From an uncultured Oscillospiraceae bacterium (GTDB lineage: Bacteria; Bacillota; Clostridia; Oscillospirales; Ruminococcaceae), in NCBI GenBank assembly GCA_934481355.1, contig CAKSPH010000023.1, positions 1 to 40,280 on the forward strand: a stretch of 40,280 nucleotides of DNA, written 5' to 3'. Positions within the stretch are counted from its first letter, which is position 1, and each line of letters begins with the position of its first letter. The notes beneath the pieces are model-generated. The model ran no database searches. It worked only from the letters and a program-made list of their open reading frames with translations, and was not told the DNA's origin. The position numbers and the translations under genes are program-made. Shown here piece by piece: positions 2,519 through 40,280 of this stretch.

Positions 2519-2764
2519 GGTAACCTCTAAAAACCTCCTTCACGGCAGATTTCTATTCCTTATATCATCTGCTTCGTTGTCAAACCTTGAAATACATACA
2601 GTAAACGCATTATCCGCCCGCGGCGGAAAACGCTGCGGTTGATACTAATTCCAGAATCACGTTTCAACTGTTCATATTATGTGTATTTGGAATTAGTATA
2701 ACGCCTAGCATCTGATATAAGTCATGTACGAAATCTGCTCGTGTCCCGGTTTTTAGAGGTTACC
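2519..2764. repeat. Long-hairpin repeat element A (subfamily 1, with nested insertion)
   Basis: This 246-bp element is bounded by GGTAACCTCTAAAAACC and its exact reverse complement. Inside the ends a further arm pairs imperfectly (GCAGATTTC with GAAATCTGC). Apart from an expanded centre it matches element D at 39089-39250 almost base for base. It is flanked by TTAT on both sides, a possible target duplication. It carries a second palindromic insertion at 2642-2699. No ORF of its own is visible. Confidence 0.9.
2642..2699. mobile_element. Nested 58-bp palindromic insertion inside element A
   Basis: The 12-bp perfect terminal inverted repeats ATACTAATTCCA and TGGAATTAGTAT enclose 34 bases. The related element D lacks this block at the equivalent place (GCGGTT..ACGCC), so it looks like a small non-autonomous element inserted into the first. 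Confidence 0.65.
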
Positions 2765-2782
2765 TTATTATACTTCGGGTAA

Positions 2783-3439
2783 TCAGCCTACGCCGTATAC
2801 CTTTCTGTATTCCTTCATTTTCCCGACATACTCCTTGCCGGGAATGATGTCCTTTTCAAGAGCGTCGATGATGTCGTTTATGTTCACGATGGAGTATACC
2901 TTAACCCCGAACTCGTCGTAAACCTCCTGAACCGCGGACTTGTCAGAGGTAAGCCCCTTTTCCATGCGGTCAACGGTGATTATCATGCCCTCGATGTTGA
3001 CCTTTGCGGCGCTCATCAGCTTCGGGAGAACCTCGCGCAGGGCCTTGCCGGAGGTCATAACGTCCTCGATGATGACTACCTTTTCGCCATCCTCAAGGGT
3101 CTTGCCCACGAACATTCCGCCCTCGCCGTGATCCTTGACCTCCTTGCGGTCAAAGCAGTAATTCACATCGGTGCCGAACTTGTTGTACAGCGCGGTGCAC
3201 GCGGATACCGCAAGCGGGATACCCTTGTATGCGGGTCCGAACAGCGTTTCAGGCTGAAGTCCGTTTTCCTTTATGCACTCAGCGTAAAATTCGCCGAGCT
3301 TTGCGAGCTGTGCGCCGGTCTTGTAGTTGCCTGCGTTGATGAAATAAGGAGCCAGTCTGCCGCTCTTGAGCGTGAACTCGCCGAACTTCAGAACTCCGCT
3401 GTCTACCATGAATCTGATAAAGCTCTCTTTGTAGGTCAT
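2783..3439 (-). CDS. pyrE: Orotate phosphoribosyltransferase
   Basis: The product is 218 residues. It transfers phosphoribose from PRPP to orotate to give OMP in pyrimidine synthesis, in the cytosol. The PRPP-binding signature VVIIEDVMTSGKA is present, with the FGPAYKGIPLA loop and the flexible loop DRKEVKDHGEGG. I chose ATG at 3439 because AGGAAGG lies just upstream and the family N-terminus TYKESFIRFMVDSGVL begins there. The frame stays open to 3628, but that extension has no family resemblance and contains the promoter. No other pyr genes are adjacent. Repeat element A starts 18 bases after the stop. Confidence 0.97.
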   Translation of the reverse strand: MTYKESFIRFMVDSGVLKFGEFTLKSGRLAPYFINAGNYKTGAQLAKLGEFYAECIKENGLQPETLFGPAYKGIPLAVSACTALYNKFGTDVNYCFDRKEVKDHGEGGMFVGKTLEDGEKVVIIEDVMTSGKALREVLPKLMSAAKVNIEGMIITVDRMEKGLTSDKSAVQEVYDEFGVKVYSIVNINDIIDALEKDIIPGKEYVGKMKEYRKVYGVG

Positions 3440-3496
3440 GTTGATTTTCCTTCCTGTATTTAATGCCGCAGGGCATAGTATTACATTCTTAATATA

Positions 3497-3525
3497 ATTA
3501 TAGCACACCTTACTGATAATTGCAA
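3497..3525 (-). promoter_or_regulatory. Promoter of pyrE
   Basis: On the minus strand TTGCAA (3520-3525), a 17-bp spacer and TATAAT (3497-3502) form a good sigma-A promoter. The start would fall about 50 bases before the pyrE ATG. Confidence 0.8.
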
Positions 3526-3723
3526 GGGTCTGCCGCGATTTTTTCCCTGCGGCGGCGGAATAAGACAGGTGTAGAAAAAATCCGGGGAATTCCGCTGTTT
3601 TATTGTGCAAATACAACATAAGCCGCATATCGTATTACCGAAAATCCGCATTAATTCGTCATCGCCATGAAACAAAGCCTCGGATTTTATGTGCATTTTG
3701 GTAAAAATCAAGCTGTTTTTCCC

Positions 3724-3752
3724 TTGACATTTTCGTTATTATGTTGTAAAAT
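3724..3752 (+). promoter_or_regulatory. Promoter of rny
   Basis: A consensus TTGACA (3724-3729), a 17-bp spacer and TAAAAT (3747-3752) are present. The predicted start near 3760 leaves a 5' leader of about 315 nt ahead of rny. Confidence 0.8.
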
Positions 3753-3865
3753 AAATATGGGCTTTTCTGCGATGGTTACATCGGCAGAAATGCTTACTTT
3801 GTACTAATATCTATTCCATATACATAATGGCGGTACTTAATATATGATTTAAAAAGGAGCCACCT

Positions 3866-4033
3866 ATGCCGTCCGGTTTCTTGGGGGGAATCAGACGGTC
3901 TGCCTGCCATGATTTCAGCGCGGCAGTCGCTGCCGCTAATGATTTACGCAGCATAGAACTGCGAGGATCGCTCATTCCGCGGGAATGGCGTCCTATTCTC
4001 AGAAAATTGTATATTACTTCCCGCCGCTTTTGA
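3866..4033 (+). CDS. Possible 55-residue leader ORF upstream of rny
   Basis: ATG at 3866 follows AAAAAGGAG (3851-3859) by six bases, a very good ribosome binding site. The frame stays open for 55 codons and ends with TGA at 4033, 39 bases before rny. The peptide is basic, has no membrane segment, and includes WRPILRKLYI and a C-terminal RRF. I recognise no family. The same DNA can form several GC hairpins, so it may be a leader peptide, an uncharacterised small protein, or a structured leader RNA with a chance frame. The strong binding site favours translation. Confidence 0.45.
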   Translation: MPSGFLGGIRRSACHDFSAAVAAANDLRSIELRGSLIPREWRPILRKLYITSRRF

Positions 4034-4072
4034 GAGTAGTGTTATTACTATCTAAGAAGGAGGGAAAACGAG

Positions 4073-5671
4073 ATGGAACCAATAATAGCGGTCATTATCG
4101 CTGTTGCTGCTTTCATCGTCGGCGCTGCCGCAGCAGGTTTTATCTGCTTCAGAATGGGCATAAAGCACCGCATCAAAACTGCGGAAGCCCAGTTTGAATC
4201 CGCAGAGAAAGAATCTGCGCGCATCATCGAAGAAGCTAACGCAAAAGCAGAAGACCGCAAGAAAGCGGCTCTTGTTGAAGCCAAGGACGAGATCTACAAA
4301 TTGCGTTCAGACGCAGAAAAGGAGATCCAGCGCTTAAAGGGAGAGACCGACCGCGAGCTGAAAGAACGCCGCGGCGAACTGACCCGCTCCGAGCGCAGAC
4401 TTCAGCAGAAAGAGGAAAACCTCGACAAGAAAACCGACAAAATGGAGCGCCTGGAAGAACAGCTCCACCAGAAGCATAAGAAGGCGGACGAGCAGATCGC
4501 CGAGGCTGAACAGCTGAAGGCGAACCAGATGGATATTCTCGAACGCATTTCCGGCTTCACCACCGATCAGGCGAAGGAGCACCTGCTGTCGCTGCTTGAC
4601 AGCGAGCTCAACCATGAAAAGGCAGTGAAGATCACTGCCTATGAGCAGAAGCTCAGGGACGAGGAAGAGGATATCGCGAGAAAGCATATCTCCCTTGCCA
4701 TTTCAAGACTTGCCGCAGACACCGTTTCCGAGATGGCAGTGTCAGTTGTTGCTATTCCCAACGACGAGATGAAGGGACGCATCATCGGACGCGAGGGCAG
4801 AAATATCCGCGCCCTTGAAACGCTTACCGGCGTTGACCTCATCATCGACGACACCCCCGAGGCTATCACACTTTCCAGCTTCGACCAGGTTCGCCGTGAG
4901 ATCGCCCGCATATCACTCGAAAGACTTATTCAGGACGGACGTATCCACCCCGCACGCATTGAGGAAACAGTCGAGAAAGCGCGTAAGGAAGTCGAGCAGC
5001 GTATCCGTCAGGAGGGCGAGCGCGCCGTTATGGAGACCAACGTCAACGGTCTTAATCATGAGCTTGTGCGCCTGATAGGCAGACTTAAGTACAGAACATC
5101 CTATCGTCAGAACGTCCTCAGCCACTCTATCGAGGTCGCTCACCTTGCCGGGATAATGGCGAGCGAGCTTGGCGTTGACGCCGCCCTCGCAAGACGTGCA
5201 GGACTTCTCCACGATATAGGAAAGGCTCTCGACCACGAGATAGAAGGCTCCCATGTACAGATAGGCGTTGACGTATGCCGCAAGTACAAGGAAAGCCCCG
5301 AGGTGATTCACGCTATCGAGGCTCACCACGGCGATGTTGAGTGCCGCACCGTTATCGCAGCGCTGGTTCAGGCCGCCGACGCGATAAGCGCCGCAAGACC
5401 CGCCGCAAGAAGCGAGAACTTTGAGAACTACATCAAGCGTCTTGAAAAGCTGGAGGAGATCTGCTGCTCCTATGACGGGGTTGAGAAATCCTACGCTATT
5501 CAGGCTGGCCGCGAGGTACGCATAATGATCAAGCCCGAATCCGTAACGGACGACGGCATGAAGGTGCTTGCGCGTGATATCGCAAAGCGTATTGAGGACG
5601 AGATGGAATATCCCGGTCAGATAAAGATCAACCTTATCCGCGAGAGCCGCGCAGTTGATTACGCAAAATAA
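4073..5671 (+). CDS. rny: Ribonuclease Y
   Basis: The product is 532 residues, a normal family length. RNase Y is the membrane-bound endoribonuclease that starts mRNA decay in many Firmicutes. Order of parts: an N-terminal membrane helix (about residues 4-26), a long charged coiled coil (30-210), a KH RNA-binding domain with [15 protein letters not shown] near residue 236, and an HD metal-dependent hydrolase domain with [10 protein letters not shown] near residue 380. ATG follows AAGAAGGAGGG. The long leader suggests post-transcriptional control, possibly by the enzyme itself (inference). It lies on its own promoter, ahead of the hydrogenase-chemoreceptor gene, with a candidate terminator between them. 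Confidence 0.98.
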
Positions 5672-5679
5672 AACACCGC

Positions 5680-5715
5680 TGCGCTCCCTGCTTCCTGTTG
5701 GGGGCGCATTATTCT
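5680..5715 (+). terminator. Candidate terminator of rny
   Basis: A 9-bp stem TGCGCTCCC (5680-5688)/GGGGGCGCA (5700-5708), with one G-T pair, is followed by TTATTCT. The T tract is weak, so some transcription could continue into the next gene. Confidence 0.5.
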
Positions 5716-5741
5716 ACTAATGAGGCAAAGGAGCTTCTGAC

Positions 5742-7673
5742 ATGATACTGTTTGACGCGTCAAAATGCGTTTCCTGCAACTCCTGCATACGCGCCTGCCC
5801 CACTCCCGAGGCGAACAAGGCTGTCGTCGCCGGGGACGGCAGGACTATCTACGATATAGACCCGCAGAAGTGCATACGCTGCGGCGCCTGCGTAAAGGAC
5901 TGCCCCCACGGTGCGCGCACATTTGAGGACGATACCCCCGCTTTCTGGCAGGATATAAAATCCGGGCAGGACATCGTGCTGCTGGTGGCGCCCTCCATCA
6001 AGGTGGCGTTTGACGGCTGCTGGCGCAATGTGCTGGAATACCTCAGAAACAACGGCGTGAAGAATATCTACGACGTATCCTTCGGAGCCGATATATGCAC
6101 CTGGGCGCACCTTCGCTATATCCGGCAGAATCCCGGGAAGAAGCTTATCTCCCAGCCATGTCCCGCAATCGTCAACTACATACTGAAATACACCCCGGAG
6201 ATCATCCCGGATCTGTCGCCGGTGCAGTCTCCGATACTCTGCGCGGCGGTGTATATCCGCAAGTACCTCGGCGTGAATACGAAGCTCGCAGCGCTCACCC
6301 CGTGCATTGCCAAGCGCGATGAGTTCCGCATGACCGGCATAGTGGACTACAACGTTACATTCGAGCATTTAGGCGCGCTTCTGGAGGAAAAGGGATTCCA
6401 TCTTGCAGACCAGAAGGGCAGGCGCTCAGCGTTTGAATTCAACGGACCCCAGGGGATAATGGGCGCGATTTATCCCAGACCGGGCGGTCTGAAAGCCTGT
6501 CTGGAGCTGGAGGCTCCGGCGCTGAGCGTTATCTCCTCCGAGGGCACGGATCACATCTACAGGGAGCTTTCGCAGTACTCTGCGGTGGGAGCCCGCGACC
6601 TCCCGGACGTATTCGACGTGCTTTCCTGCGGACGCGGCTGCGGAAGCGGTCCGGCGATAGGCACTCCGCTTTCCGTGTACAGAATGAGCGGTATACTGAA
6701 CGGTATTGAGAAATACAACCGCAACAACCGCGTGAAATTCGACAGGAAGGGCAGGGATAAACAGTTCCTTGCATTCGATAAGGAGCTTAAGCTGGAGGAT
6801 TTCCTGCGCAGCTACGAAAAGCATCCGGTAGAGACTGCCAGCTATACGGACGAGCAGATAGACGAGGTCCTGCACAGCCTCGGCAAAACCACCGAGACCG
6901 AGATGAACTACAACTGTCGTGCCTGCGGCTTTGCGACCTGCCGGGAGCTTGCAAAGGCTATCCTGGACGGCACCAGCACGAAGAATTCCTGCGGGCAGTA
7001 TACCCTGCACGAGGCTGACCGCCGCGCCGCCCAGATAGAGCAGACCAACGCCAGCATAAGCGACATAACCTCTCAGCTCTCTGACGTGGTATCACGGCTT
7101 ACGGACAGCATTTCCAGCGTGAAGGAGTCCACCGGCGGGATCACCGAGCTGAACAGCCAGAATCACGAGCAGGCGGAGCGGCTCTCCGGCGTGGTAACGG
7201 AGCTGCGGCAGCTGACGGAGAACATCAACAGCTCCATGGGCGCGATAAACGAGAGCGTGACCGGATTCTCAAAGATGACCCGCGATATCTCGGATATAGC
7301 ACGGCAGATAAACATTCTCGCGATAAACGCCAGCATAGAGGCGGCGCGCGCCGGGGAATACGGAAAGGGTTTCGCCGTTGTCGCCGAGGAGGTGCGGAAT
7401 CTGGCGCAGCACTCCCAGACCGCCGTTACTGAGGCGGAGGCGAGCAACAGGCTGGTGTTCAGCAATATTGACGACGTAAACGGCATAGTTTCCACGATAA
7501 ACGACAAGATGACCGATATACTCGCCATGATGAAGAAGATGAACGGCAATATATCCGATACACTCGCCAGGGGGAGCGACATAAGCAGCGCAATGACCGG
7601 CGTATCCGGCATAACCTCGACAGTTGACAGCCTTGTCAGCCGCGCCGGGGAAGTGCTCCGCACCGCCGACTGA
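5742..7673 (+). CDS. Soluble [FeFe]-hydrogenase-like chemoreceptor fusion
   Basis: The product is 643 residues with no signal peptide or membrane helix. Order of parts: a two-cluster ferredoxin domain (Cys 9, 12, 15, 19 and 44, 47, 50, 54); an [FeFe]-hydrogenase H-cluster domain with SQPCPA (Cys140), TPCIAKRDEF (Cys188) and SCGRGCGSG (Cys296, Cys300); a small Fe-S domain (Cys 392, 395, 400, 417); then a methyl-accepting chemotaxis domain with the conserved hairpin tip EAARAGEYGKGFAVVAEEV near residue 535. All four H-cluster cysteines are kept. The proton-relay cysteine before Cys140 is Pro, as expected for a sensor rather than a fast catalyst. This matches the sensory group C hydrogenases. 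It probably reports H2 or redox state to CheA/CheW, though the ligand is inferred. RBS AAAGGAG precedes ATG. Confidence 0.93.
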   Translation: MILFDASKCVSCNSCIRACPTPEANKAVVAGDGRTIYDIDPQKCIRCGACVKDCPHGARTFEDDTPAFWQDIKSGQDIVLLVAPSIKVAFDGCWRNVLEYLRNNGVKNIYDVSFGADICTWAHLRYIRQNPGKKLISQPCPAIVNYILKYTPEIIPDLSPVQSPILCAAVYIRKYLGVNTKLAALTPCIAKRDEFRMTGIVDYNVTFEHLGALLEEKGFHLADQKGRRSAFEFNGPQGIMGAIYPRPGGLKACLELEAPALSVISSEGTDHIYRELSQYSAVGARDLPDVFDVLSCGRGCGSGPAIGTPLSVYRMSGILNGIEKYNRNNRVKFDRKGRDKQFLAFDKELKLEDFLRSYEKHPVETASYTDEQIDEVLHSLGKTTETEMNYNCRACGFATCRELAKAILDGTSTKNSCGQYTLHEADRRAAQIEQTNASISDITSQLSDVVSRLTDSISSVKESTGGITELNSQNHEQAERLSGVVTELRQLTENINSSMGAINESVTGFSKMTRDISDIARQINILAINASIEAARAGEYGKGFAVVAEEVRNLAQHSQTAVTEAEASNRLVFSNIDDVNGIVSTINDKMTDILAMMKKMNGNISDTLARGSDISSAMTGVSGITSTVDSLVSRAGEVLRTAD

Positions 7674-7684
7674 CAGGAGGAGCC

Positions 7685-8281
7685 ATGCCAAGACCCACCG
7701 ACCTGCGGGTCATAAAGACCCGCCAGACGATACGCAGCGCGCTTATCTCCCTGATGTCGGAAAAGGAGCTTTCAGACATCACGATATCAGAGCTTTCGGA
7801 GAGGGCGCAGATAAACCGCAAGACGTTCTACCGGCATTACGGTGCGATCTCCGATGTTATAACGGAGTTTGAGGACGAGCTTCTGTCGGATTTCGCGGAT
7901 ATCCTGAAAACCAGCAACACCAGTATATTCGAGATAGGCTCCGTGCTGCGGGAGATAAGCGCTCTTATCAGCGGCAATCAGGAATACTTCGTTAAGCTGC
8001 TGAAGCTCAACCCGGAGCTTTTCAGCAGCGGCAGGGTAAAGGCGATGCTCCGCCGGGCGGTGGAGATAGCCCTGCGGGACATATGCCATTTAACGGACGA
8101 GCAGACCCTCCACGCCCTGTCGGAATTCACCACCAGCGGCGTCCTGTCGCTTTATTCCGCGTGGTTCGATACGGGCTGCACCGGAAGCCTTGACGTGATA
8201 ACCGATATCGCCAACAGGATGACAATGAGCGGTCTGAAAGGCTTCGTTGAGGACGAGAAGCTGCGAGAAATGCTCAAGTAA
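7685..8281 (+). CDS. TetR/AcrR-family transcriptional regulator
   Basis: The product is 198 residues. The N-terminal helix-turn-helix is clear: ITISELSERAQINRKTFYRHY at about residues 34-54, the typical TetR recognition helix ending in TFYxHY. The C-terminal part is all-helical and would hold the ligand pocket. The start follows CAGGAGGAG. It begins 11 bases after the hydrogenase-chemoreceptor stop and ends in a strong terminator, so the two are co-transcribed. Its target and ligand are unknown. Autoregulation or control of the sensor gene is an inference. Confidence 0.93.
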   Translation: MPRPTDLRVIKTRQTIRSALISLMSEKELSDITISELSERAQINRKTFYRHYGAISDVITEFEDELLSDFADILKTSNTSIFEIGSVLREISALISGNQEYFVKLLKLNPELFSSGRVKAMLRRAVEIALRDICHLTDEQTLHALSEFTTSGVLSLYSAWFDTGCTGSLDVITDIANRMTMSGLKGFVEDEKLREMLK

Positions 8282-8291
8282 TCACTAACAG

Positions 8292-8326
8292 AAATGGGGC
8301 TGTGGTTTTACACAGCCCCATTTTTA
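8292..8326 (+). terminator. Intrinsic terminator between convergent genes
   Basis: A 13-bp perfect stem (8292-8304 with 8311-8323), a 6-nt loop and a run of T close the sensor-TetR operon. The outer A run lets it act on the minus strand for the ABC transporter gene as well. Confidence 0.92.
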
Positions 8327-8369
8327 TATCCGTCCGGCGGAGCCGGACAACAAAATTCCGAATTAATTC

Positions 8370-11336
8370 TTACTCTGTCCTGAGCGCCTCTACCGGGTCC
8401 TTCTTTGCCGCCAGTCCAGCCGGAACAAGTCCCGCTATCAGCGTAAGGAGCATACTTATCACCACGAGGATAACTCCGCCCTGCCACGGGAGAAGCGAAA
8501 CGTTCGCGATCCCTGTGATGTTCTCGATGATAATGTTTATCGGGATATTCAGCAGCAGCGTCACGCCGATTCCTATAACGCCCGCCGAGAAGCCCACGAT
8601 AAGCGTTTCGGCGTTGAATACGTTCGAAATATCGTGCCTGGAGGCTCCCATAGCACGGAGTATTCCTATTTCCTTGGTGCGCTCCAGTACGGATATGTAG
8701 GTTATAATGCCTATCATTATCGAGGAAACTATCAGCGATATCGCCACGAATGCAATCAGAATATAGGATATCGCGTTGACTATATCGCTGACGGAGGACA
8801 TCATAAGTCCGACATAGTCGGTGTAGTTGATGACGTCGCCCTGCTTATCCTCGGCGATCCTGCCGTCGTTGTATTTCTCTATGAGCCTGGTTATTACTTC
8901 CTTGCTCTCGAAATCCTTTGCGTATATCTTGATGGAGCTCGGCTCTGCGAGGTCTGCCTTTCCGAGCAGCTTCAGGTTGCCGTCATAGGTCGCGTCGGTG
9001 GTCTCCGGCTCCCTGGTCATCTCCATAAGCTGGCTGAGCTGGTCGGAGGTCAGCACCTGCATGAACAGGGTGTATATCTTCGCTGGTTCTGTCATTCCGC
9101 TCATCTTTGCGGAGAGCTGTGCGTTCTGCTCCGGCGTCAGGGAGGCGGCTATCCGGGCGGAGAGCTGAGCCCTCTGCTCGTCGGTCAGCATGGATGCCGC
9201 GTCCGCACCGGTCTGCACCTGCATGAGCTGTTCAGGCGTGAGAAGTTCCATCATGATGGAGCTCATCTGCTCGTCGGATATCATCGCCATCATCTCGGAC
9301 TGTATCTCAGCGCGCTGTTCATCGGTCAGTGAAGCCATGATTCCCTCGTTGAGCCTTGCCTGCTGTTCCTCTGTGAGCATTGCGGAGAGCTGCGCCATCG
9401 CGTCCTCCTGGGACATGGCGTCCTTTTCCTCTTCGTCAGCCCTGGGGAATTCTATGCCGGTGAATACGTCAACGTCGGGGTTCTCCTCCTGCTGTTTCAC
9501 TATCTCGCTGCTGTTCACTTTGTCTATCATGTACTCGGTCAGCGCGTGGGTGTAGCCTATTCCGCCGGAGCGGGTCGTGGATATCAGGGAATCCGCGTCG
9601 GGCTTCAGTATGCCGACTACCTTGAGCTGCGGAGCCTCTGAAACGGCGTTCTCCATATATTCTTCGTCGCCGCGCATATCCGTCCATGTGCCGTCGTCGT
9701 TCTTCTGGTAGAAGTCAGGGGCGGTCAGCAGGCTGAACTGCATACCCATAAGCTCGTCATAGCTGAAAGACTGGTCGCCGGTGTCTATGTCGAAGCTCTC
9801 GCCCGCCATTACAGCCGCCATCATTCCCTCAAGCTCGGACTGGTCGCGCAGTCCCAGAGTATACAGTGTGACATCGGAAAGCTCGTTGCGGTCGGAAACA
9901 AGCAGAACTACCTCGTTCCAGCTTTCGGGAAGCCTGCCCGCGAGCACCTCGTATTCGGATTTCAGCATATCGGTGCTGAGCAGCTCCTCCCATGCGTCGT
10001 AGGAGCTCATGGAGCTGCTTCCGCCCATCAGGGAGGAATATGTGGAGGTCATCTGGCTGACGCTTGCCGCCATTGATTCGCCCATCATCGCGGTCATTAC
10101 CGTGGAGGGATTCACCTGGATAAGATTATCGTTCAGGTCGTGCCCGTAGATGTAGAGGTTCGGGTCGTAGCTGTACGCAATCTCGCTGATGTGCTCCTGA
10201 ATACCCTCGGGGTTGCTTTCGATGTACTCCTTGAACTCCTTCAGGTTGTTGGTCTGAACTTCGGAGAGCATGGTTTTTGTCATCTCCGTGGAGATATCGT
10301 TGGTGTAAATGCGGTCCGGATCGCGCTCCTCTTCGGAGTTTTCACGCACGTTCATCATGGAGGTCATGAGGCTGGTGTAGTCCACGGTCTCATGCTGTAT
10401 CGACACAGGGAATGACGCCAGCGTAGAGCGCTCCACGCTGTTGATGTATTCCTGCACGCCGTTGGACAGCGAGAGGATAAGCGCTATTCCGATGATACCT
10501 ATGCTCCCCGCAAAGGATGTAAGGAACGTCCTGCCCTTTTTCGTCATGAGGTTGTTTTTCGACAGGGAAAGCGCCGTCAGGAACGACATGGAGGTTTTCT
10601 TTCCCTTGGAAACGTTCGTCTTGCGGACCTCTGGAGCGGCTTCCGGCTGTGCGGCGGGGTCGAACGGGTCGCTGTCGCCGACTATCGTTCCGTCAAGCAG
10701 CTTCACTATACGGGTGGAGTACTTTTCGGCAAGCTCCGGATTGTGCGTTACCATGATTACCAGACGGTCGCGGGCTATCTCCTTGATGAGCTCCATTATC
10801 TGTATGCTGGTTTCGCTGTCAAGGGCGCCGGTCGGTTCGTCCGCGAGGAGAATATCCGGATCGTTTACGAGCGCCCGCGCGATTGCTACTCTCTGCATCT
10901 GGCCGCCGGACATCTGGTTCGGGCGCTTGTTCAGCTGATTCCCCAGACCCACCTTTTCAAGGGCTTCCCTGGCGCGCTGTCTGCGCTCCGCCTTTGAAAC
11001 TCCGGAGAGGGTGAGCGCCAGCTCAACGTTTGAAAGCACGCTCTGATGCGGTATCAGGTTGTAGCTCTGGAAGATGAATCCCACCGAGTGGTTGCGGTAG
11101 GTGTCCCAGTCGGAGGACTTGTATTTCTTTGTGGACTGCCCGTTGATTATCAGGTCGCCGCTGGTGTACTGGTCGAGGCCGCCGATGATGTTCAGCAGCG
11201 TGGTCTTTCCGCAGCCGGACTGTCCCAGAATGGAAACGAGCTCGCTCTCGCGGAATGCGATGGAAACGCCTTTCAGCGCGTGTACCGTTTCGCTGCCGGT
11301 TTCATAGTCCTTTACTATATTCCTTATTTCTAGCAT
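8370..11336 (-). CDS. ABC transporter, fused ATPase and FtsX/MacB-type permease
   Basis: The product is 988 residues. The ATPase domain (1-230) has Walker A GQSGCGKTT (38-46), signature MSGGQMQRVAIARAL (142-156) and Walker B ILLADEPTGALD. A first membrane helix lies at 272-292, a large extracytoplasmic region at about 293-850, and three helices at about 853-882, 911-935 and 952-975 with the FtsX motif RTKEIGILRAMGAS. This is MacB-like topology, normally used to move peptides or lipids or to relieve antibiotic stress. Odd: residues 645-770 hold about seven copies of an LTxEQxAxL motif at roughly 16-residue spacing (DNA 9027-9404). RBS AAAGGAGA. It lies 18 bases behind marR, which probably controls it. 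Confidence 0.95.
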   Translation of the reverse strand: MLEIRNIVKDYETGSETVHALKGVSIAFRESELVSILGQSGCGKTTLLNIIGGLDQYTSGDLIINGQSTKKYKSSDWDTYRNHSVGFIFQSYNLIPHQSVLSNVELALTLSGVSKAERRQRAREALEKVGLGNQLNKRPNQMSGGQMQRVAIARALVNDPDILLADEPTGALDSETSIQIMELIKEIARDRLVIMVTHNPELAEKYSTRIVKLLDGTIVGDSDPFDPAAQPEAAPEVRKTNVSKGKKTSMSFLTALSLSKNNLMTKKGRTFLTSFAGSIGIIGIALILSLSNGVQEYINSVERSTLASFPVSIQHETVDYTSLMTSMMNVRENSEEERDPDRIYTNDISTEMTKTMLSEVQTNNLKEFKEYIESNPEGIQEHISEIAYSYDPNLYIYGHDLNDNLIQVNPSTVMTAMMGESMAASVSQMTSTYSSLMGGSSSMSSYDAWEELLSTDMLKSEYEVLAGRLPESWNEVVLLVSDRNELSDVTLYTLGLRDQSELEGMMAAVMAGESFDIDTGDQSFSYDELMGMQFSLLTAPDFYQKNDDGTWTDMRGDEEYMENAVSEAPQLKVVGILKPDADSLISTTRSGGIGYTHALTEYMIDKVNSSEIVKQQEENPDVDVFTGIEFPRADEEEKDAMSQEDAMAQLSAMLTEEQQARLNEGIMASLTDEQRAEIQSEMMAMISDEQMSSIMMELLTPEQLMQVQTGADAASMLTDEQRAQLSARIAASLTPEQNAQLSAKMSGMTEPAKIYTLFMQVLTSDQLSQLMEMTREPETTDATYDGNLKLLGKADLAEPSSIKIYAKDFESKEVITRLIEKYNDGRIAEDKQGDVINYTDYVGLMMSSVSDIVNAISYILIAFVAISLIVSSIMIGIITYISVLERTKEIGILRAMGASRHDISNVFNAETLIVGFSAGVIGIGVTLLLNIPINIIIENITGIANVSLLPWQGGVILVVISMLLTLIAGLVPAGLAAKKDPVEALRTE

Positions 11337-11919: not shown

Positions 11920-12001
11920 TACTGCACGGATAAAATCAGCGTACTGCATAAAAATAATTCACCCGGCGCACCCTATTATACACCTAACCTGAAATATAAA
12001 T

Positions 12002-12160
12002 GGTCACCTCTAAAAACCTTGCTTGAGTGAAAATGTGTATAGCACACCGACTGCTTCAGAAAACCTCCTCGTAAGGCATACAGCCTTACTTTGTCGGCTT
12101 CCATCGCATTCGGCGCACTCTGCCCATGTTCACTTTTCAAACCGGTTTTTAGAGGTGACC
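12002..12160. repeat. Long-hairpin repeat element C (subfamily 2)
   Basis: This 159-bp element is bounded by GGTCACCTCTAAAAACC and its exact reverse complement GGTTTTTAGAGGTGACC. The arms pair imperfectly through most of their length, and the centre closes on a 7-bp hairpin (GTAAGGC/GCCTTAC). AAAT flanks both ends. It is the reverse complement of element E at 40204, with a few differences. It lies between the marR promoter and the small gene at 12183. No ORF is visible. Confidence 0.9.
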
Positions 12161-12182
12161 AAATGTAAAGAGTGATAGATTT

Positions 12183-31574: not shown

Positions 31575-31578
31575 CATC

Positions 31579-32058: not shown

Positions 32059-32069
32059 GAGGAAAATAT

Positions 32070-33677: not shown

Positions 33678-33690
33678 GGAGGTACACTGA

Positions 33691-35232
33691 GTGAGGATAA
33701 CAAATTCAACGCTTCTGCGTAACTACGACAGGAATCTGAAAAGGATATCCACGCAGAAGTACTCCTGCGAGAACAAGATATATTCCGGCAGAAAGTATAC
33801 AAGGGCAAGCCAGTCGCCGCTGGAGGCTTCAAAGGCGCTGACGGTCAGAAAGCAGCTTTCCCATGCGGAGCAGTACAAGGAGAACCTTGACGTGGCCGAT
33901 AAGTTCTACACCGAGGCGGAGACCTCCCTGCTCCAGATATCCGATTCGCTGGCGAATGTCCGTGAAACGCTGATATACGCCTGCAACTCCACCAAGGAAA
34001 AGACCACAGACCTCAATATCCTGGCGGAGCAGATAGAGACCAAGGCGCGCGAGATGGTGTCGATATTCAACACCGACAGCGCAGAGAGAGCCATTTTCGG
34101 CGGTGAGAGCAACAGCGCCGAGCCCTTCACGATAGAATATGACGAGAGCGGCCACGCTTCCCAGCTCCTTTATCACGGGGTGCCGATAAATGCATACAAC
34201 AAAGAGAACTCATTCCCGTTTTCAAGCGATGTGTTCATTGATATCGGTATAGGAATGGTGCTTAAGGACGACGGCACAGTGGATTCACAGTCCGCAATGA
34301 AGATCTCCTTTAACGGCGCGGGAGTTTCCGGCTGCGGATATGATATGGCAGGCGAGTCCACGAAATTCCGCATGGATTCGTTCTTTACCGGCGACGTTCA
34401 GAATTCCGTAAGACTGAACGCCAACGGCCAGACGATAACCGTAAAGTTCAAGGGGAACACCCTTGACGCTATCCGCGAGGGCATCAACAACTCGTTCAGG
34501 AGCGCAGGCATAACGGATACAAACAAGATACCGGTTCTGGATAACGAGGGCAACCTTACAATGCCCGACGGAAGCGATGTTTCCGTATCCCAGAGACCCT
34601 CAATAAACCTTGACCAGCTTAAGGACGGTCAGCTTTACACGGTGGACGTTTATGCGAGCGGCACCAAAAAGACTATCACTTTCACAGGAGCCGCTGATAA
34701 GGCAGGCACAGCCGCAAATATTCAGGCTCAGCTTGACGAAGCTTTCAAGTATGAGAAGCACACGCCCGCCATTGACGAATACGGCAACATGAAGGTGGAG
34801 TACATTGACGGCAACGGCAAGACGGTTTCCGATTCCGTTTATCTCGCAAAGAGCGACTCCGGAACCGCGCCCGATATCCAGAACGGCGACACATACTCCA
34901 ATAACTACATTCAGGTGACGATAGACGCTGCCGCTGCGCTCAGGCGCGGCGATATCGAGTACGCTAACGCCTGCATCGACAGGATAGTTACTTCCTCGGA
35001 GAACCTGCTGGTGGAGATAGCAGACCTCGGTAATGCAGAGGAATACATACAGTTCAACACGGACAGATTCGACACGAGAATCCTGAACCTCAAGGACAGA
35101 CAGAAGACCCTGGAGGCGACGGACCTTGAATCCGAGATAACTCTCATGAAAACGTATGAGGCTATTTACAACGCGTGCCTCCAGATGTCAAGCTCAATAG
35201 TTCCGAACAGCATATTCAACTACATAAAGTAA
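33691..35232 (+). CDS. flgL: Flagellar hook-associated protein 3, enlarged
   Basis: The product is 513 residues, against about 300 in most species. GTG at 33691 follows TAAGGAGGT; the N-terminus RITNSTLLRNYDRNLKRISTQKYSCENKIYSGRKYTRASQSPLEASKAL is the flagellin-type D0/D1 start, and the C-terminus (about 415-513) is the matching D1/D0 half. Between them, residues about 160-410 form an extra domain with repeated GDxYTVDVYASGTKKTITFTG-type strands, probably surface exposed. FlgL is the second junction ring that joins FlgK to flagellin. Confidence 0.95.
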   Translation: MRITNSTLLRNYDRNLKRISTQKYSCENKIYSGRKYTRASQSPLEASKALTVRKQLSHAEQYKENLDVADKFYTEAETSLLQISDSLANVRETLIYACNSTKEKTTDLNILAEQIETKAREMVSIFNTDSAERAIFGGESNSAEPFTIEYDESGHASQLLYHGVPINAYNKENSFPFSSDVFIDIGIGMVLKDDGTVDSQSAMKISFNGAGVSGCGYDMAGESTKFRMDSFFTGDVQNSVRLNANGQTITVKFKGNTLDAIREGINNSFRSAGITDTNKIPVLDNEGNLTMPDGSDVSVSQRPSINLDQLKDGQLYTVDVYASGTKKTITFTGAADKAGTAANIQAQLDEAFKYEKHTPAIDEYGNMKVEYIDGNGKTVSDSVYLAKSDSGTAPDIQNGDTYSNNYIQVTIDAAAALRRGDIEYANACIDRIVTSSENLLVEIADLGNAEEYIQFNTDRFDTRILNLKDRQKTLEATDLESEITLMKTYEAIYNACLQMSSSIVPNSIFNYIK

Positions 35233-35355
35233 TGGCAATATACGCCGCCGCATAGCGGTACAGGCAGGGAAGCCCGGCGTATCTATATATGGTTATACAA
35301 GGGCGATATCTGTTCAGGGTTCGCCTGAAAGCAGACAACTCAGGAGGTGTTGGAA
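35233..35355 (+). promoter_or_regulatory. Structured intercistronic region before the DUF6470-fliW-csrA genes
   Basis: Two hairpins can form: ATACGCCG/CGGCGTAT around an inner CCGC/GCGG, and TTCAGG/CCTGAA near 35313-35329. Next comes AGGAGG with a second GGA close by. GGA words next to hairpins upstream of a csrA operon could be CsrA targets; this is inference only. Confidence 0.4.
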
Positions 35356-35982
35356 GTGAATGGTAATTTATTGCAGATAACAACGATCCCGATAAACATC
35401 GAGATCAAGGTGACAAACGCGAAGTTCCAGTATCCGGACGCGACAGAGAGACAGCCGAAGGTGAACATCACCACCAAGAACGGCGAGTACGTCATGAAGG
35501 CTGACCCGATAAAGGTCAACATCGACACTTATCAGGCGAGAAAGAGCCTTGGCTACGGCCACATGACCGACGGCGACATGATGAAGCAGAAAGCTCAGGA
35601 GGGCTGGTCGCTGGCGTTTCAGGGGACTGCGAAGGTGGCCTCTGAGGGGAATCAGCTTGCACGCGGAATGTCCCCGGCTGAAATAGCTATCCAGAACGCC
35701 CGCGCAGGCGCAACGGTGGAGACCGTCATGGAATATCTCCCGAAAGAGGGCGCCGACATCACATTTGACGGCGGCACGCTCAGCATCGACTACCAGGTGG
35801 GCGATCAGGAGATCGACTGGGATACCATGGAGCAGCTCCCGATGGAGTTCGTTCCGGGCAGCGTTGAGATAATCATGAAGGACAGACCAAGAGTAGAGAT
35901 AGAGTATATCGGCGGGCCTATCTATTTCCCGAGAAGCTCCGACCCGAATTACGAGCCGCCGGTGCTTGACGTTAAGGGCTGA
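35356..35982 (+). CDS. DUF6470 (YviE-like) flagellar-locus protein
   Basis: The product is 208 residues from GTG at 35356, eight bases behind AGGAGG; the earlier GTG (35347) and TTG (35350) overlap or crowd that site. The sequence has beta strands at both ends (LQITTIPINIEIKVTNAKFQ; VEIIMKDRPRVEIEYIGGPIYFP) and a helical centre with Met/Gln-rich turns. Genes of this family sit between flgL and fliW in many clostridia and bacilli. Their molecular role is not known. It lies 17 bases before fliW's first possible start and is certainly co-transcribed. Confidence 0.88.
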   Translation: MNGNLLQITTIPINIEIKVTNAKFQYPDATERQPKVNITTKNGEYVMKADPIKVNIDTYQARKSLGYGHMTDGDMMKQKAQEGWSLAFQGTAKVASEGNQLARGMSPAEIAIQNARAGATVETVMEYLPKEGADITFDGGTLSIDYQVGDQEIDWDTMEQLPMEFVPGSVEIIMKDRPRVEIEYIGGPIYFPRSSDPNYEPPVLDVKG

Positions 35983-36005
35983 TACGCAGCCTGAAAGGAA
36001 TGCCT

Positions 36006-36434
36006 ATGAAGATCATTACAAGAGATTTCGGCGAGCAGGAAGTTGACGAGAGCAAAATCATCACTTTCCCGCAGGGTATAATCGGCTTTGAGGACGCGAA
36101 GAAATACGCGCTGTTAAGTCCGCTCGGCGACGGGGTGTTCCCGATGTGGCTTCAGTCCGTGGATTCAAAGGAGCCGTGCTTTGTCGTGTACGACCCGATG
36201 GAGATATACGGCGACTACCGCTTCGAGATATCCGACGAGGAGCAGGCGCTCCTCGGAATAGACGAGAACGCCGCTTACAGATGTCTTGCGGTGGCTATCG
36301 TCCCTGACGATTACAGAAAGACCACCATCAATCTCAGATGCCCCATCGTGGTGAATACCAGGTCCCGCGTGGCTGCCCAGGTTATCCTGACGGAGCACTT
36401 CGACTTCAGGGCGCCGGTCTACGAGGAGGTCTGA
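36006..36434 (+). CDS. fliW: Flagellar assembly factor FliW
   Basis: The product is 142 residues from ATG at 36006, seven bases behind AAAGG; an ATG at 36000 touches that site. The conserved ITFPQGIIGFEDAKKYALL, FPMWLQSVDSKEPCFVV, YRCLAVAIVPDD and NLRCPIVVNTRSR blocks are all present. FliW binds CsrA when free and releases it when bound to flagellin, so flagellin translation is tied to export. Its stop lies one base before csrA, and the csrA ribosome binding site is inside fliW. Confidence 0.98.
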   Translation: MKIITRDFGEQEVDESKIITFPQGIIGFEDAKKYALLSPLGDGVFPMWLQSVDSKEPCFVVYDPMEIYGDYRFEISDEEQALLGIDENAAYRCLAVAIVPDDYRKTTINLRCPIVVNTRSRVAAQVILTEHFDFRAPVYEEV

Positions 36435-36435
36435 A

Positions 36436-36669
36436 ATGCTCGTTGTAACAAGAAAAACTGACGAGAGTCTTATAATCTCCGACAATATTGAAATAACCGT
36501 GCTGGAGATCGGCAGGGATAAGGTCAAGATAGGCATAAACGCCCCCAAAGAGGTAAAGATCATCAGAAGCGAGCTGAAAGACGCGCGCCAGACGAATGAG
36601 CAGGCTGCTCATGCTTCCGGCGCTGCGATAGCTGAGCTCCTGAAACAGCATAAACAGGAGGAAAACTGA
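36436..36669 (+). CDS. csrA: Carbon storage regulator CsrA
   Basis: The product is 77 residues. MLVVTRKTDESLIISDNIEITVLEIGRDKVKIGINAPKEVKIIRSEL is the full CsrA dimer fold. It binds GGA motifs in mRNA leaders and blocks translation; in Gram-positives the main target is flagellin mRNA. The C-terminal extension (about residues 50-77) is the kind needed for FliW control. AGGAGG overlaps the end of fliW, so the two are translationally coupled. Confidence 0.98.
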   Translation: MLVVTRKTDESLIISDNIEITVLEIGRDKVKIGINAPKEVKIIRSELKDARQTNEQAAHASGAAIAELLKQHKQEEN

Positions 36670-36670
36670 C

Positions 36671-39085
36671 ATGGCAGTAAATAATATCAGACTTGGCGGT
36701 CTGACCTCTGGTTTTGATACTGAGGCTATGGTTTCTCAGCTCCTTTCATCTTACCAGACAAGGATAGACAACCAGAACAAGAAGCTCACGAAATTATCGT
36801 GGCAGCAGACGGCGTATCAGGACATCACAAAAAAGATAACCGAGTTCAAGAATACCTACTTCGATATCTTAAAGCGCGATACATACCTGATGAGCCCGAC
36901 TTCCTTCAACAAGTATACTTCCTCAGTTACGGCAGGTAACAACGCAGACACCACCGGGCTTTCGGTCAGCACGACCTCAAGCTCCGCGGCGGGTAGCTAC
37001 AAGCTGAAACTCTCTCAGCTTGCAACGGCGGCAAAGGCACAGGGAAGCACCCTTGAAATGGGCAACTTCAACCTTGACCTCGACAAAGCCATCGCTACCT
37101 CCGGCGGGGAGATAACCACCGCTGACGACGGCAGCAAGACCCAGAAGTTCAGCATGGCGCTGGATATTCAGGTCGGCAGCGTAAAGAAAACCGTTGAATT
37201 TGACGTTGACGCAGCGCTCGGCGCAGACGGAAACGTCGCAAGCACGGACGACCTTAAGAAGAATATCGTTTCCGCGCTGAATACAAAGCTTCAGGAGAGC
37301 TTCGGCTACTCCGGAAGAAAGGACGGCGCTACCGGTGCGACTGACGCAAACGGAAACGAGTGGTACCTTCAGGCGGAGCTTGATTCCAACGGAAACGCAC
37401 AGTTCAAGGTAGGCGGAAACTCCACCGTTACCATCGCGGAGAACAAGGGCAGCTTCGGACTCAACAAGCCCAGGGCAAAGACCGCTGTCTCCGTTTCCAG
37501 CGTTGTCACCGGCAAGAACACATTCTCTGTTGAGATAGGCGGAAAGACCCATCAGCTCAGCTTTGACGGAGTTTCCACCACATACTACGACAGCCGCAAC
37601 CTTTCCGGCAACGACGCAGTGCTCAAGGAGTTCAACGAGCTGAAGGCGGCTTCCTACCGCAAGGCTAATCATCTGGCTGCTGACGCTACCGTAACCTCCA
37701 ACCAGCTTGAAGCGTATACATACACAAGCGAGCAGGCGGCAAAGGACAAGAACACCGCCGCGCTCACAGAGGCGCTCAAGGGTGTTGACGGCTACACGTT
37801 CACGCTGGACGGCTCCTACCTGACGGCAAAGGACAGCAGCGGCAATGACGCGGATTTCGCCATCACGGCAATCGACGGCGGCACCCTCGGACTTTCCAAG
37901 GCTTCCGCTTCCAACAAGGCCAACTCCAATGCGAAGCTTTCCGACCTCGGCTTCAAGGCTGACAACGATGGCAGCTATACAATGACCATCAACGGCACAA
38001 AGATCACCGTTGACAAGGACGCTACGGTTTCCTCGCTCATGGCGGCAGTGAACAAGTCTGACGCAGGCGTAACCATGACGTATTCCTCCCTTACAAACAG
38101 CTTCACGGTAGAGGCTAACGAAAAGGGCGGTGCAGGAAAGGTAGAGATAGGGGCGAACGACCTCACAAAGGGGCTCGGTCTTGCAGACGATAACGGCACG
38201 GTAGGTTTTGAGCAGGGCAAGAATGCGATATTCGAAATAAACGGTCAGGAAATCTACCTGAACGACAACACATACACACTTGACGGGACTACCTTCACGT
38301 TCAACGACAATATGAAGACAGGCGAGGAATACACCGTCAACGTCACAAAGGATAACAGCACTGTCAAGGAGACCGTAAAGAAGTTCGTTGAGTCCTACAA
38401 CAAGCTTATCGAGGACGTTTACGACTACATCGGAAAGTCCCCGGCAGAGGATTCCGACGGCAACAGATACGAGCCGCTTACCGACGCCGAGAAGGAGGAC
38501 ATGAGCGAGGACGAAATAACCAAGTGGGAGGAGAATGCAAAGCAGGGCATTCTTTACAATGATTCCACTGTTTCCACGATCATGAGCAAGATGCGCTCCG
38601 TGCTGTATGAGAGCGTGACCCTTGACGACGGAAATAAGTTCGGCATTTACAGCATGGGCATAAAGACCTCCAGCGAATGGAGCGAGCACGGCAAGCTGGA
38701 GATAGACGAGGACGCGTTCGACAAGGCGTTCGAGAACAACTCCGACGCTATCGTAAAGCTGTTCACCGATACCACCTCCGGCGTGATGACAAAGCTGAAC
38801 AAGGTCATCGACGGCGCAGTAAAGAGCTCCGGCGCGGCTGAGAACAGAGGCACCCTGGTGCAGAAAGCCGGCAAGGCTGACAGCTCCGTTACCACGGACA
38901 GCACCATCTACAAGCAGATGGTAAAGATGCAGGAGCGCCTGAAGGAGCTCCAGAACAGATACGACGATAAGGAAGAGTACTGGTGGAAGGTGTTCACCAA
39001 CATGGAGACCGCAATGAGCGACCTCAACAGCCAGACCAGCTACATCTCCCAGTATCTCGGGGGCAGCACGGGCAGCTACCAGTAA
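36671..39085 (+). CDS. fliD: Flagellar filament cap protein FliD
   Basis: The product is 804 residues, larger than the usual 450-700. The N-terminus (NNIRLGGLTSGFDTEAMVSQLLSSYQTRID) has the FliD start, and the C-terminal domain is typical: VKKFVESYNKLIEDVYDYIG, then GIYSMGIKTSSEWSEHGKLEIDEDAF and a final coiled coil (about 745-790). The middle is a long Ala/Ser/Asp-rich set of beta domains (about 100-560). FliD caps the growing filament and helps flagellin fold. AGGAGGAAAA lies at the end of csrA. Two stop codons in a row (TAATAA) end it, and repeat element D starts directly after. Confidence 0.97.
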   Translation: MAVNNIRLGGLTSGFDTEAMVSQLLSSYQTRIDNQNKKLTKLSWQQTAYQDITKKITEFKNTYFDILKRDTYLMSPTSFNKYTSSVTAGNNADTTGLSVSTTSSSAAGSYKLKLSQLATAAKAQGSTLEMGNFNLDLDKAIATSGGEITTADDGSKTQKFSMALDIQVGSVKKTVEFDVDAALGADGNVASTDDLKKNIVSALNTKLQESFGYSGRKDGATGATDANGNEWYLQAELDSNGNAQFKVGGNSTVTIAENKGSFGLNKPRAKTAVSVSSVVTGKNTFSVEIGGKTHQLSFDGVSTTYYDSRNLSGNDAVLKEFNELKAASYRKANHLAADATVTSNQLEAYTYTSEQAAKDKNTAALTEALKGVDGYTFTLDGSYLTAKDSSGNDADFAITAIDGGTLGLSKASASNKANSNAKLSDLGFKADNDGSYTMTINGTKITVDKDATVSSLMAAVNKSDAGVTMTYSSLTNSFTVEANEKGGAGKVEIGANDLTKGLGLADDNGTVGFEQGKNAIFEINGQEIYLNDNTYTLDGTTFTFNDNMKTGEEYTVNVTKDNSTVKETVKKFVESYNKLIEDVYDYIGKSPAEDSDGNRYEPLTDAEKEDMSEDEITKWEENAKQGILYNDSTVSTIMSKMRSVLYESVTLDDGNKFGIYSMGIKTSSEWSEHGKLEIDEDAFDKAFENNSDAIVKLFTDTTSGVMTKLNKVIDGAVKSSGAAENRGTLVQKAGKADSSVTTDSTIYKQMVKMQERLKELQNRYDDKEEYWWKVFTNMETAMSDLNSQTSYISQYLGGSTGSYQ

Positions 39086-39088
39086 TAA

Positions 39089-39250
39089 GGTAACCTCTAA
39101 AAACCTCCTTCACGGCAGATTTCTATGACTTATATCATCTGCTTCGTTGTCAAACCTTGAAATACATACAGTATTACTGCGGTTTGACGCCTAGCATCTG
39201 ATATAAGTCATGTACGAAATCTGCTCGTGTCCCGGTTTTTAGAGGTTACC
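39089..39250. repeat. Long-hairpin repeat element D (subfamily 1) between fliD and fliS
   Basis: This 162-bp element is bounded by GGTAACCTCTAAAAACC and its exact reverse complement. Inner pairs GCAGATTTC/GAAATCTGC, ATGACTTATATCA/TGATATAAGTCAT and GTCAAACC/GGTTTGAC let it fold almost end to end. AATAA flanks both sides and includes the fliD stop. It is nearly identical to element A minus the nested block. In the flagellar mRNA it would be a large hairpin separating fliD from fliS. Confidence 0.92.
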
Positions 39251-39276
39251 AATAAATAAGAACCGAGGGTAAAACC

Positions 39277-39684
39277 ATGTCAAATCCCTATGCAGCATAC
39301 AAAAAGCAGTCAGTTTCCACCATGACCCCGGTAGAGGTTGTCATCAAGCTGTACAGCGAGACCGAGCGTCAGCTCGCGATCGGCGTCAGCGCCATAGAAG
39401 AAAAGGATATCATGAAAGCGCACAATTCGCTTGTAAAGGCACAGGAGCTCCTCGGGGCGCTGCGCGGCGCGCTGGATATGGATATCCCGATCTCCAAGAA
39501 TCTCGACCAGCTTTATGATTTCTTCCAGAGGACGGCAGAAAAGGCGAACATGAAGAAGGACGCGGCGACCGCTGAAGAGGTAAAGAAGATCATTCCGATG
39601 ATCGCGGATCTTCGGGACGCGTTCACCCAGATAAGCCAGATGACCAGGGAAGAAATAGAGGCGCAGGCAAATGGCAAGAAATAA
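39277..39684 (+). CDS. fliS: Flagellin export chaperone FliS
   Basis: The product is 135 residues. YAAYKKQSVSTMTPVEVVIKLYSETERQLAIGV is the signature FliS start (YxxxxxxTxxPxxLIxMLYEG-like), followed by four helices including LVKAQELLGALRGALDMDIPISKNLDQLYDFF. It binds flagellin C-termini to stop early polymerisation. The ribosome binding site (GAGGGT) is modest. It starts 26 bases behind the hairpin element. Confidence 0.96.
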   Translation: MSNPYAAYKKQSVSTMTPVEVVIKLYSETERQLAIGVSAIEEKDIMKAHNSLVKAQELLGALRGALDMDIPISKNLDQLYDFFQRTAEKANMKKDAATAEEVKKIIPMIADLRDAFTQISQMTREEIEAQANGKK

Positions 39685-39717
39685 GCGTGTTTTCTGAAAT
39701 TTCAGGGAGGTGTTATT

Positions 39718-40203
39718 ATGGCAGAGCTGAAAGGCTGTGAGGGAGTTATCGAGGTGATGAAGCAGATCATCGAGGTGCTCCAGGAATACGAAAAGCAGAC
39801 GGACGCCATGAGTAACGCGGATCTGGAAACGCTTCAGGAGGCGCTGCTCGCGCGAAACGAGCTTATAGGCAGGCTGGAGGAGCTCAAGGATAAGCTTGAC
39901 GAGATAACAGAACTTGAGATGAGCGATGAGCGCATACTGCTGAAAACGCTTGTCCACGGCAGCTATGTCAATGCCCCGCTGGACGAGGATCACAAGAAGA
40001 TCCAGCTTTTGCAGCGGAACATCACCGTTATCAAGCAGCGCATAGTCGATAAGGATAAGGTGATATCCGGGCAGTTCAAGAGCCAGCACGTTGATTCCCG
40101 CAAGGAGCTTGAACAGCTCAAGCAGACCCGCCAGAAGATCGGGTACTACAACAGCTCAGTCGTCGGCAGGGCGACTGGTCAGGCGCTCAACAAGAATCTA
40201 TAA
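39718..40203 (+). CDS. FliT/FlgN-like flagellar chaperone
   Basis: The product is 161 residues, almost all helical, with coiled coils at about 10-70 and 95-140 (IEVLQEYEKQTDAMSNADLETLQEALLARNELIGRLEELKDKLDEI). This is the pattern of FliT and FlgN type export chaperones. The position directly after fliS is where fliT lies in many Firmicutes, so a FliD chaperone is likely, but the family is too divergent to be sure. CAGGGAGGT precedes ATG. Repeat element E begins at the base after its TAA stop. Confidence 0.8.
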   Translation: MAELKGCEGVIEVMKQIIEVLQEYEKQTDAMSNADLETLQEALLARNELIGRLEELKDKLDEITELEMSDERILLKTLVHGSYVNAPLDEDHKKIQLLQRNITVIKQRIVDKDKVISGQFKSQHVDSRKELEQLKQTRQKIGYYNSSVVGRATGQALNKNL

Positions 40204-40280
40204 GGTCACCTCTAAAAACCGGTTTGAAAAGTGAAAATGGGTAGAGTGCGCCGAATGCGATGAAAGCCGACGAAGTAAGG
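40204..40280. repeat. Long-hairpin repeat element E (subfamily 2), cut by the window end
   Basis: It begins with GGTCACCTCTAAAAACC directly behind a TAA stop and follows the reverse complement of element C for 77 bases with a few differences. The window ends at the apex of the predicted hairpin, so the second arm is not seen. Confidence 0.88.

What the first reader, a model, noticed from the sequence alone, without database searches (positions are those of the whole stretch)
2519..40280. Dispersed family of long-hairpin elements with a shared 17-bp end and pairing-preserving variation
Four copies lie in 40 kb (2519-2764, 12002-12160, 39089-39250, 40204 onward). All end in GGTNACCTCTAAAAACC and its reverse complement. 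There are two subfamilies with unrelated cores: A and D begin GGTAACC, C and E begin GGTCACC. The one differing base changes on both ends together (GGTTACC or GGTGACC at the far side), so pairing is kept. They carry no ORF, sit only between genes, and show AT-rich 4-5 bp flanking repeats (TTAT, AAAT, AATAA). Either a MITE-like non-autonomous mobile family or a domesticated RNA hairpin family would explain this. The base-pair covariation favours selection on the folded form or on paired ends.
Basis: partly seen in the sequence, partly recalled or inferred. Interest (0 to 1): 0.85.

Follow-up and report, generated by a model that had tools for sequence, protein, structure and literature searches.

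The report
Mobile hairpins sharing one folded core
These repeats are small transposons that cannot move by themselves and carry the ends of a known bacterial jumping-gene family; inside they hold a folded core that also turns up in small transposons with quite different ends, so the core looks like a part that matters in its own right.

Summary
The repeats are real: seven exact 17-mers in 40 kb (0.18 expected at up to 3 mismatches), three complete elements and one cut by the window end. They are MITEs. Of 82 complete elements pooled from public genomes, 49 have 4-bp direct repeats (4.0 expected). All four window sites lack the element in the nearest genome found. IS5-family transposase elements carry matching ends; one relative has a complete copy with TATA duplication.

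"Unrelated cores" is also wrong: C and D share a 60-nt stem/internal-loop module. In 42 examples 18 of 19 pairs changed on both sides, and an unpaired position covaries (A/G 51, C/A 39, 2 exceptions, 2 gapped, of 94 rows). The module recurs in MITEs with other ends and in 36 of 91 genomes of another family, without orientation bias. Rfam gave no match for it.

The ends are ordinary; the portable core is unexplained and I found no description of it.

The parts
2515..2768 (.). Element A (2519-2764) with 4-bp direct repeats TTAT at 2515-2518 and 2765-2768; D-type, composite
2642..2699 (.). Extra hairpin inside A with ends ATACTAATTCC/GGAATTAGTAT
   Evidence: no exact ATACTAATTCCA in the 195 loci held
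11998..12164 (.). Element C (12002-12160) with direct repeats AAAT at 11998-12001 and 12161-12164
12051..12110 (-). Core module in C, with conserved loop motifs decayed
   Evidence: model R3, 35.0 bits, E 4.3e-8
39084..39255 (.). Element D (39089-39250) with direct repeats AATAA at 39084-39088 and 39251-39255; lies between fliD and fliS
39139..39198 (-). Core module in D, AAGGC-type written TAGGC ... AACG
   Evidence: model R3, 62.5 bits, E 2.4e-16, a training row
40204..40280 (.). Element E, visible part; reversed copy of C, cut by the window end
40254..40280 (+). First part of the core module in E
   Evidence: sequence, by alignment of the letters to the C-type core; no model match tested as it is cut off

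Best explanation
The elements are type II MITEs. An IS5-family transposase encoded elsewhere recognises the inverted ends (about GG(T/G)NNCCTCTAAAAACC), and inserts the element into AT-rich 4-mers, which are duplicated. Only the ends are shared with the IS. Shown: ends, duplications, sites without the element, matching ends on IS5-type elements. Inferred: that this transposase moves them in trans. The interior is a second, separable part: a conserved folded module (outer helix; AAGG(A/C) opposite (G/A)ACG; 7-8 bp helix; G(A/C)A opposite (A/G)A; 7-bp apical stem; short loop) that is also carried by MITEs with different ends. I think it is recognised as a folded single strand, more likely at the DNA level than as part of neighbouring mRNAs, because its orientation to genes is even. 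That last step is inference.
For: 4-bp repeats in 49 of 82 elements, 4.0 expected. No element at any of the four orthologous sites in G015. L140: 343-aa transposase, IS5_4 272 bits (cut-off 140), ends GGGGACCTCTAATAACC and GGGCATCTCTAAAAACC, TATA on both sides. In G015, L211 (73% identical N-part of the transposase) begins GGCAACCTCTAAAAAC, and L240 has the exact GGTAACCTCTAAAAACC about 130 bp from a weak 27-residue match to the transposase C-end (E 6e-4). Core: 18 of 19 pairs changed on both sides in 42 sequences, 179 doubly changed cells against 58.9 shuffled; loop position A/G 51, C/A 39, 2 exceptions, 2 gapped, of 94 rows; same core in MITEs with ends GGAAGCACTGATTAA and GGGCGTGTTGATTAA; orientation 29 along both neighbours, 28 against both.
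Against: No complete IS with GGTNACC at both ends was found, and no whole genome of the window's host is held. Of loci with transposase fragments at 50-65% identity, L212 and L213 show no such end and L214 a degenerate one. The STF2_218 subfamily shows no arm coupling (950 of 2000 permutations as good). The core is decayed in window C and interrupted in A. Copies within a genome are not independent, and several alignments were chosen with pairing as a criterion.
Confidence: 0.85

Rival explanations
1. The hairpins are host regulatory RNAs that were spread because they control neighbouring mRNAs; the ends are only the base of the stem.
For: D lies inside the fliD-fliS gene run and would be transcribed; all fold strongly; the core has conserved unpaired motifs.
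Against: 4-bp duplications and matching IS ends; orientation to both neighbouring genes is even, 29 and 28, with 12 and 12 mixed and 19 at contig edges, and 12, 9, 9, 7 and 15 in an earlier set; no Rfam match for elements C and D.
Confidence: 0.12
2. The core has no function; copies keep their pairing by palindrome-correcting mutation, and MITE families exchanged interiors by recombination.
For: Palindromes are prone to this (general knowledge). L083 carries the spacer of an inner hairpin of L032 in inverted form (seen). Composite elements occur (A, L201).
Against: It does not predict the non-standard loop covariation A/G versus C/A or conserved unpaired motifs in elements with different stems.
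Confidence: 0.2
3. The core is a substrate of a Y1 (RAYT-like) transposase, as for GTAG-type REPs.
For: REP-like form: dispersed, between genes, unpaired tag beside a stem; on the complementary strand the tag reads CGTC or CGTT.
Against: Y1_Tnp found in 7 of 20 genomes with the core and 9 of 20 without an R2 match (one of those 20, G330, later had one R3 match).
Confidence: 0.05

Closest known systems
IS5-family MITEs: BrickBuilt and MITE464 of Porphyromonas gingivalis, ATR of Neisseria meningitidis (passages of PMC4596501 seen)
   Same: Short, no ORF, inverted ends shared with IS5-family ISs, nothing of the transposase left inside.
   Different: Different end sequences (GAGACC...); those passages mention no folded core shared between elements with unrelated ends.
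RNA-folding MITEs such as Correia/NEMIS and ERIC (passages of review PMC10969869 seen)
   Same: Intergenic hairpin MITEs that fold strongly when transcribed.
   Different: Other ends; the core described here was not mentioned in the passages seen.
CGTC-tagged REPs (PMC3733652: outline with abstract, passages and the section on CGTC families seen)
   Same: Dispersed hairpins with an unpaired CGTC at the foot of a stem that begins with A-T pairs, loops of 4-5 nt, no dedicated transposase known.
   Different: Here the tag is CGTC or CGTT, lies inside a longer hairpin, the 8-bp helix is followed by an internal loop and a second 7-bp stem, the tail is not CCA, and the unit sits in MITEs with ends and duplications. 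Firmicutes and clostridia are not mentioned in that paper's main text.

Membership tests
MITE | Short (70-420 bp), inverted ends, no transposase gene | tested here: met
MITE | Target duplication of fixed length | tested here: met
   4 bp in 49 of 82, 4.0 expected; no excess at 3 bp
MITE | Insertion polymorphism | tested here: met
   no element at the four orthologous sites in G015
IS5-family derivative | Ends shared with an IS5-family element | tested here: met
   L140 both ends; L134, L141, L142, L150, L210, L211, L241 one end each; not seen at L212, L213
IS5-family derivative | Mobilised by that transposase | not testable with these tools
   needs an assay
CGTC-tagged REP | Unpaired CGTC at one end of the palindrome | tested here: inconclusive
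   complement of column 81-84: CGTC in about half, CGTT in most others; the tag is inside a longer hairpin
CGTC-tagged REP | 8-9 bp stem closed directly by a 4-5 nt loop | tested here: not met
   two helices separated by an internal loop
CGTC-tagged REP | Tail CCA | tested here: not met
   complement of AAGG(A/C) gives (T/G)CCTT
Rfam family | Match to a covariance model | tested here: not met
   elements C and D: none up to E 10; seven other loci: tRNAs and one sub-threshold tpke11 match, 21.3 bits against 43, overlapping an element end in L247
GTAG REP with RAYT | Associated Y1 transposase | tested here: not met
   7 of 20 against 9 of 20 genomes

The most novel reading that the evidence does not exclude
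A portable, structure-conserved module is shared by MITEs that move with different ends, and by their flanks with different duplication lengths, in at least two bacterial families. It is selected as a folded single strand, so these MITEs have two working parts: interchangeable ends for a DDE transposase and a common REP-like core for an unknown partner. This would offer one answer to how CGTC-type repeats without a transposase of their own can spread.
Probability: 0.45. Interest if true: 0.8.

Novelty: new variant of a known kind. Interest (0 to 1): 0.62.

Why it matters
It settles the window elements as IS5-type MITEs and shows that the stem at their ends is not evidence of RNA selection. It also points to a structured core that persists while the mobility ends differ. 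If the core is functional, it is a concrete target for finding what keeps dispersed bacterial hairpins alive; how CGTC-type repeats are moved was left open in PMC3733652 (abstract and passages seen).

Tried and rejected
Chance matches: loci L017, L028 and L051 hit the 17-mer in similar coding sequence (L017 and L051 share a long ORF; a translation factor by my reading), and L076, L080 and L098 have no close mate. The ORFs shared by L109 and L117 next to an end are a MinD-like ATPase and a small enzyme by my reading, not a transposase. Alignment A1 over mixed subfamilies gave a poor consensus (-5.1 kcal/mol, 13 pairs) and was replaced. A Y1/RAYT partner was not supported. Viral contigs: 4 stretches with the 17-mer, none with a mate within 450 bp.

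A first loop count on A6 read the wrong base in many rows; the column-based count replaces it. An earlier count on 46 distinct regex cores gave A/G 34, C/A 11, A/A 1. Selection caveats: the 22 cores of A4 were picked by loop motif and by a fold energy of -18 kcal/mol or lower, L253 included and L053 dropped by me. The regex behind most A5 rows required pairing in the two inner helices but not in the outer one; 41 of 43 references listed plus window D were aligned. A6 was fitted to model R3. Fisher values (9e-10; 1.5e-17 for 67 rows whose names are not in the training set) treat related copies as independent and are only indicative.

Literature: searches. Listed: 0 of 0, 17 of 17, 30 of 62, 9 of 9, 10 of 13, 12 of 156, 8 of 155, 0 of 0 papers. 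I saw titles and abstract starts for these, and passages or sections of six papers (PMC10969869, PMC11656737, PMC4596501, PMC2267715, PMC12306157, PMC3733652). None of what I saw describes this family or core.

Full report
1. The observation. GGTNACCTCTAAAAACC occurs 7 times in the window, all exact; shuffled sequence gives 0.18 at up to 3 mismatches. Three elements are complete (A 2519-2764, C 12002-12160, D 39089-39250). A fourth (E, from 40204) is cut by the window end and is a reversed copy of C. A, C and D fold far better than shuffled sequence (z -12.9, -8.9, -14.8). Neighbours include a phosphoribosyltransferase, a MarR-family gene, fliD and fliS by Pfam; two neighbours had no match.

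2. Distribution. In 16 host genomes reached through these loci the pattern, with up to 1 mismatch, occurs up to 46 times per strand, and the reversed pattern not at all (2 of the 18 loci given were not held).

3. They are MITEs. Among 56 complete elements a 4-bp direct repeat is present in 39, with 2.9 expected from mismatched flanks. With looser ends and more loci it is 49 of 82, with 4.0 expected, and no excess at 3 bp. The repeats are AT-rich (TATA 7, TTAT 5, TTAA 5, TTTA 4 and others). Frames are open on both sides in 8 of 70 elements and at 743 of 1250 random positions. The nearest genome found, G015 (FliS 84% identical), has orthologous intergenic sequence at the four window sites without an element. 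It carries both types elsewhere.

4. The partner. A search for DDE_Tnp_1 in 12 host genomes gave 7 places in 6 genomes, one of them with the same end (L134). With the DDE half of that protein, 7 of 148 genomes sampled from G015's family matched. L140 is complete: 343-aa transposase (DUF772 plus DDE_Tnp_1; NCBIfam IS5_4 at 272 bits, cut-off 140), ends GGGGACCTCTAATAACC and GGGCATCTCTAAAAACC, TATA on both sides. With the L140 protein, 53 of 394 genomes of the order matched, mostly distant relatives. In G015, L211 begins GGCAACCTCTAAAAAC, and L240 has the exact GGTAACCTCTAAAAACC about 130 bp from a weak 27-residue match to the transposase C-end (E 6e-4). Matching single ends were also seen at L141, L142, L150, L210 and L241; L214 is degenerate; L212 and L213 show none.

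5. Base 4 agrees on both ends in 3 of 3 complete window elements. Across 82 elements it agrees in 45%, against 42% if independent; of 25 elements with GGTNACC at both ends 18 agree, 16 of them C/C. Copies found by homology rather than by the 17-mer often have unlike ends such as GGGAACC with GGTCACC. The stem at the ends therefore reflects shared recognition, I infer.

6. The interior does covary. In 12 relatives of C, 8 of 43 pairs changed on both sides (2.2 in shuffles). Their own arms pair at -26.5 kcal/mol against -21.6 when swapped, 0 of 2000 permutations as good. Against this, the STF2_218 subfamily shows no coupling (950 of 2000) and D-type is weak (149 of 2000, n = 4).

7. A core shared between end types. 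A model of 12 C-type elements (R1) matched 28 of 297 genomes of the family, among them repeats with different ends but a similar apical part. Alignment of 22 cores gave 8 of 13 pairs changed on both sides and 32 doubly changed cells (10.0 in shuffles). Alignment of 42 gave 18 of 19 pairs and 179 cells (58.9 in shuffles); the outer helix there was not a criterion of the motif filter. Model R3, built from those 42, finds the core in D (62.5 bits, a training row) and in C (35.0 bits, not a training row) of the window, so the two types are not unrelated. One unpaired position covaries without standard pairing: AAGGA goes with GACG in 51 rows, AAGGC with AACG in 39, with A/A and C/G once each and 2 rows gapped, of 94 distinct rows. 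L317 and L322, otherwise alike over nearly all of the core, differ by this double change (sequences).

8. Reach. Model R2 (22 cores) matched 43 of 295 genomes of G015's order and 3 of 299 in a phylum sample, two of the three being hits of the order search too. The broader R3 matched 19 of 104 genomes of the class and 36 of 91 of the family of G002, the genome of a Selenomonadaceae record, with up to 54 matches in one genome (the first look was capped at 60 or 52 candidates a genome). Of these matches I fetched ten copies each from G998, G1121 and G970. The cores there sit in MITEs with ends GGAAGCACTGATTAA (G998 and G1121, 4-bp duplication in 16 of 20) and GGGCGTGTTGATTAA (G970, TA on both sides in 9 of 10 and no 4-bp repeat; TA could also be part of the ends). 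The core was not found in 13 loci fetched for the transposases (best E 0.29), of which only L140 is a complete IS. Among 80 of the 120 loci fetched with the 17-mer, 11 places matched at E 0.001 or better, none in a record titled outside the Bacillota (titles).

9. What the core does. Its orientation to neighbouring genes is even: 29 along both, 28 against both, 12 and 12 mixed, 19 at contig edges; 5 of 100 lie inside a long ORF (simple ORF calls). That argues against a cis-acting mRNA element and fits a DNA-level role or an RNA made from its own promoter. On the complementary strand it resembles CGTC-tagged REPs (PMC3733652), but stem, tail and enclosed position differ, so I do not file it there. 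Y1 transposases are not enriched: 7 of 20 genomes with the core, 9 of 20 without an R2 match, one of which later had an R3 match.

10. Verdict. The elements are IS5-type MITEs, new members of a known kind. The portable core makes them a variant that I did not find described in the searches named under Tried and rejected. Its function is open.

Noticed in passing
window 2642-2699; L201; L249, L250:250-450, L254, L263, L287: Ends of the form ATACTAAT(T)C mark a second hairpin family: a short one lies inside element A, and longer ones carry the same core (L249, L250, L254, L263, L287). Its duplication and transposase were not determined.
   Followed up: partly
L083:3119-3277 and L032:107-265: The spacer of an inner hairpin is inverted between these two otherwise similar elements, as if the arms had flipped it.
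   Followed up: no
L388-L392 (G1108, G1078); G1108 C28, C57, C62, C63: Two cores lie about 115 bp apart in opposite orientation, like REP dimers.
   Followed up: no
L260:1528-1586, L261:1529-1576: A repeat with GCTAGGCAAACGAGCGAAGG...GAGCGAGTTTAACGACGC fits the C/A version of the core in a further sequence context.
   Followed up: partly
L134:1453-2485: The IS5-type transposase of this copy lies in two overlapping frames; whether this is decay or programmed frameshifting was not examined.
   Followed up: no
window 79-452: Four tRNA genes in a row (Rfam).
   Followed up: no
loci such as L054, L069, L081 and L090: Many metagenome contigs end 120-127 bases inside an element, so the repeats probably break assemblies and copy numbers here are lower bounds.
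   Followed up: no
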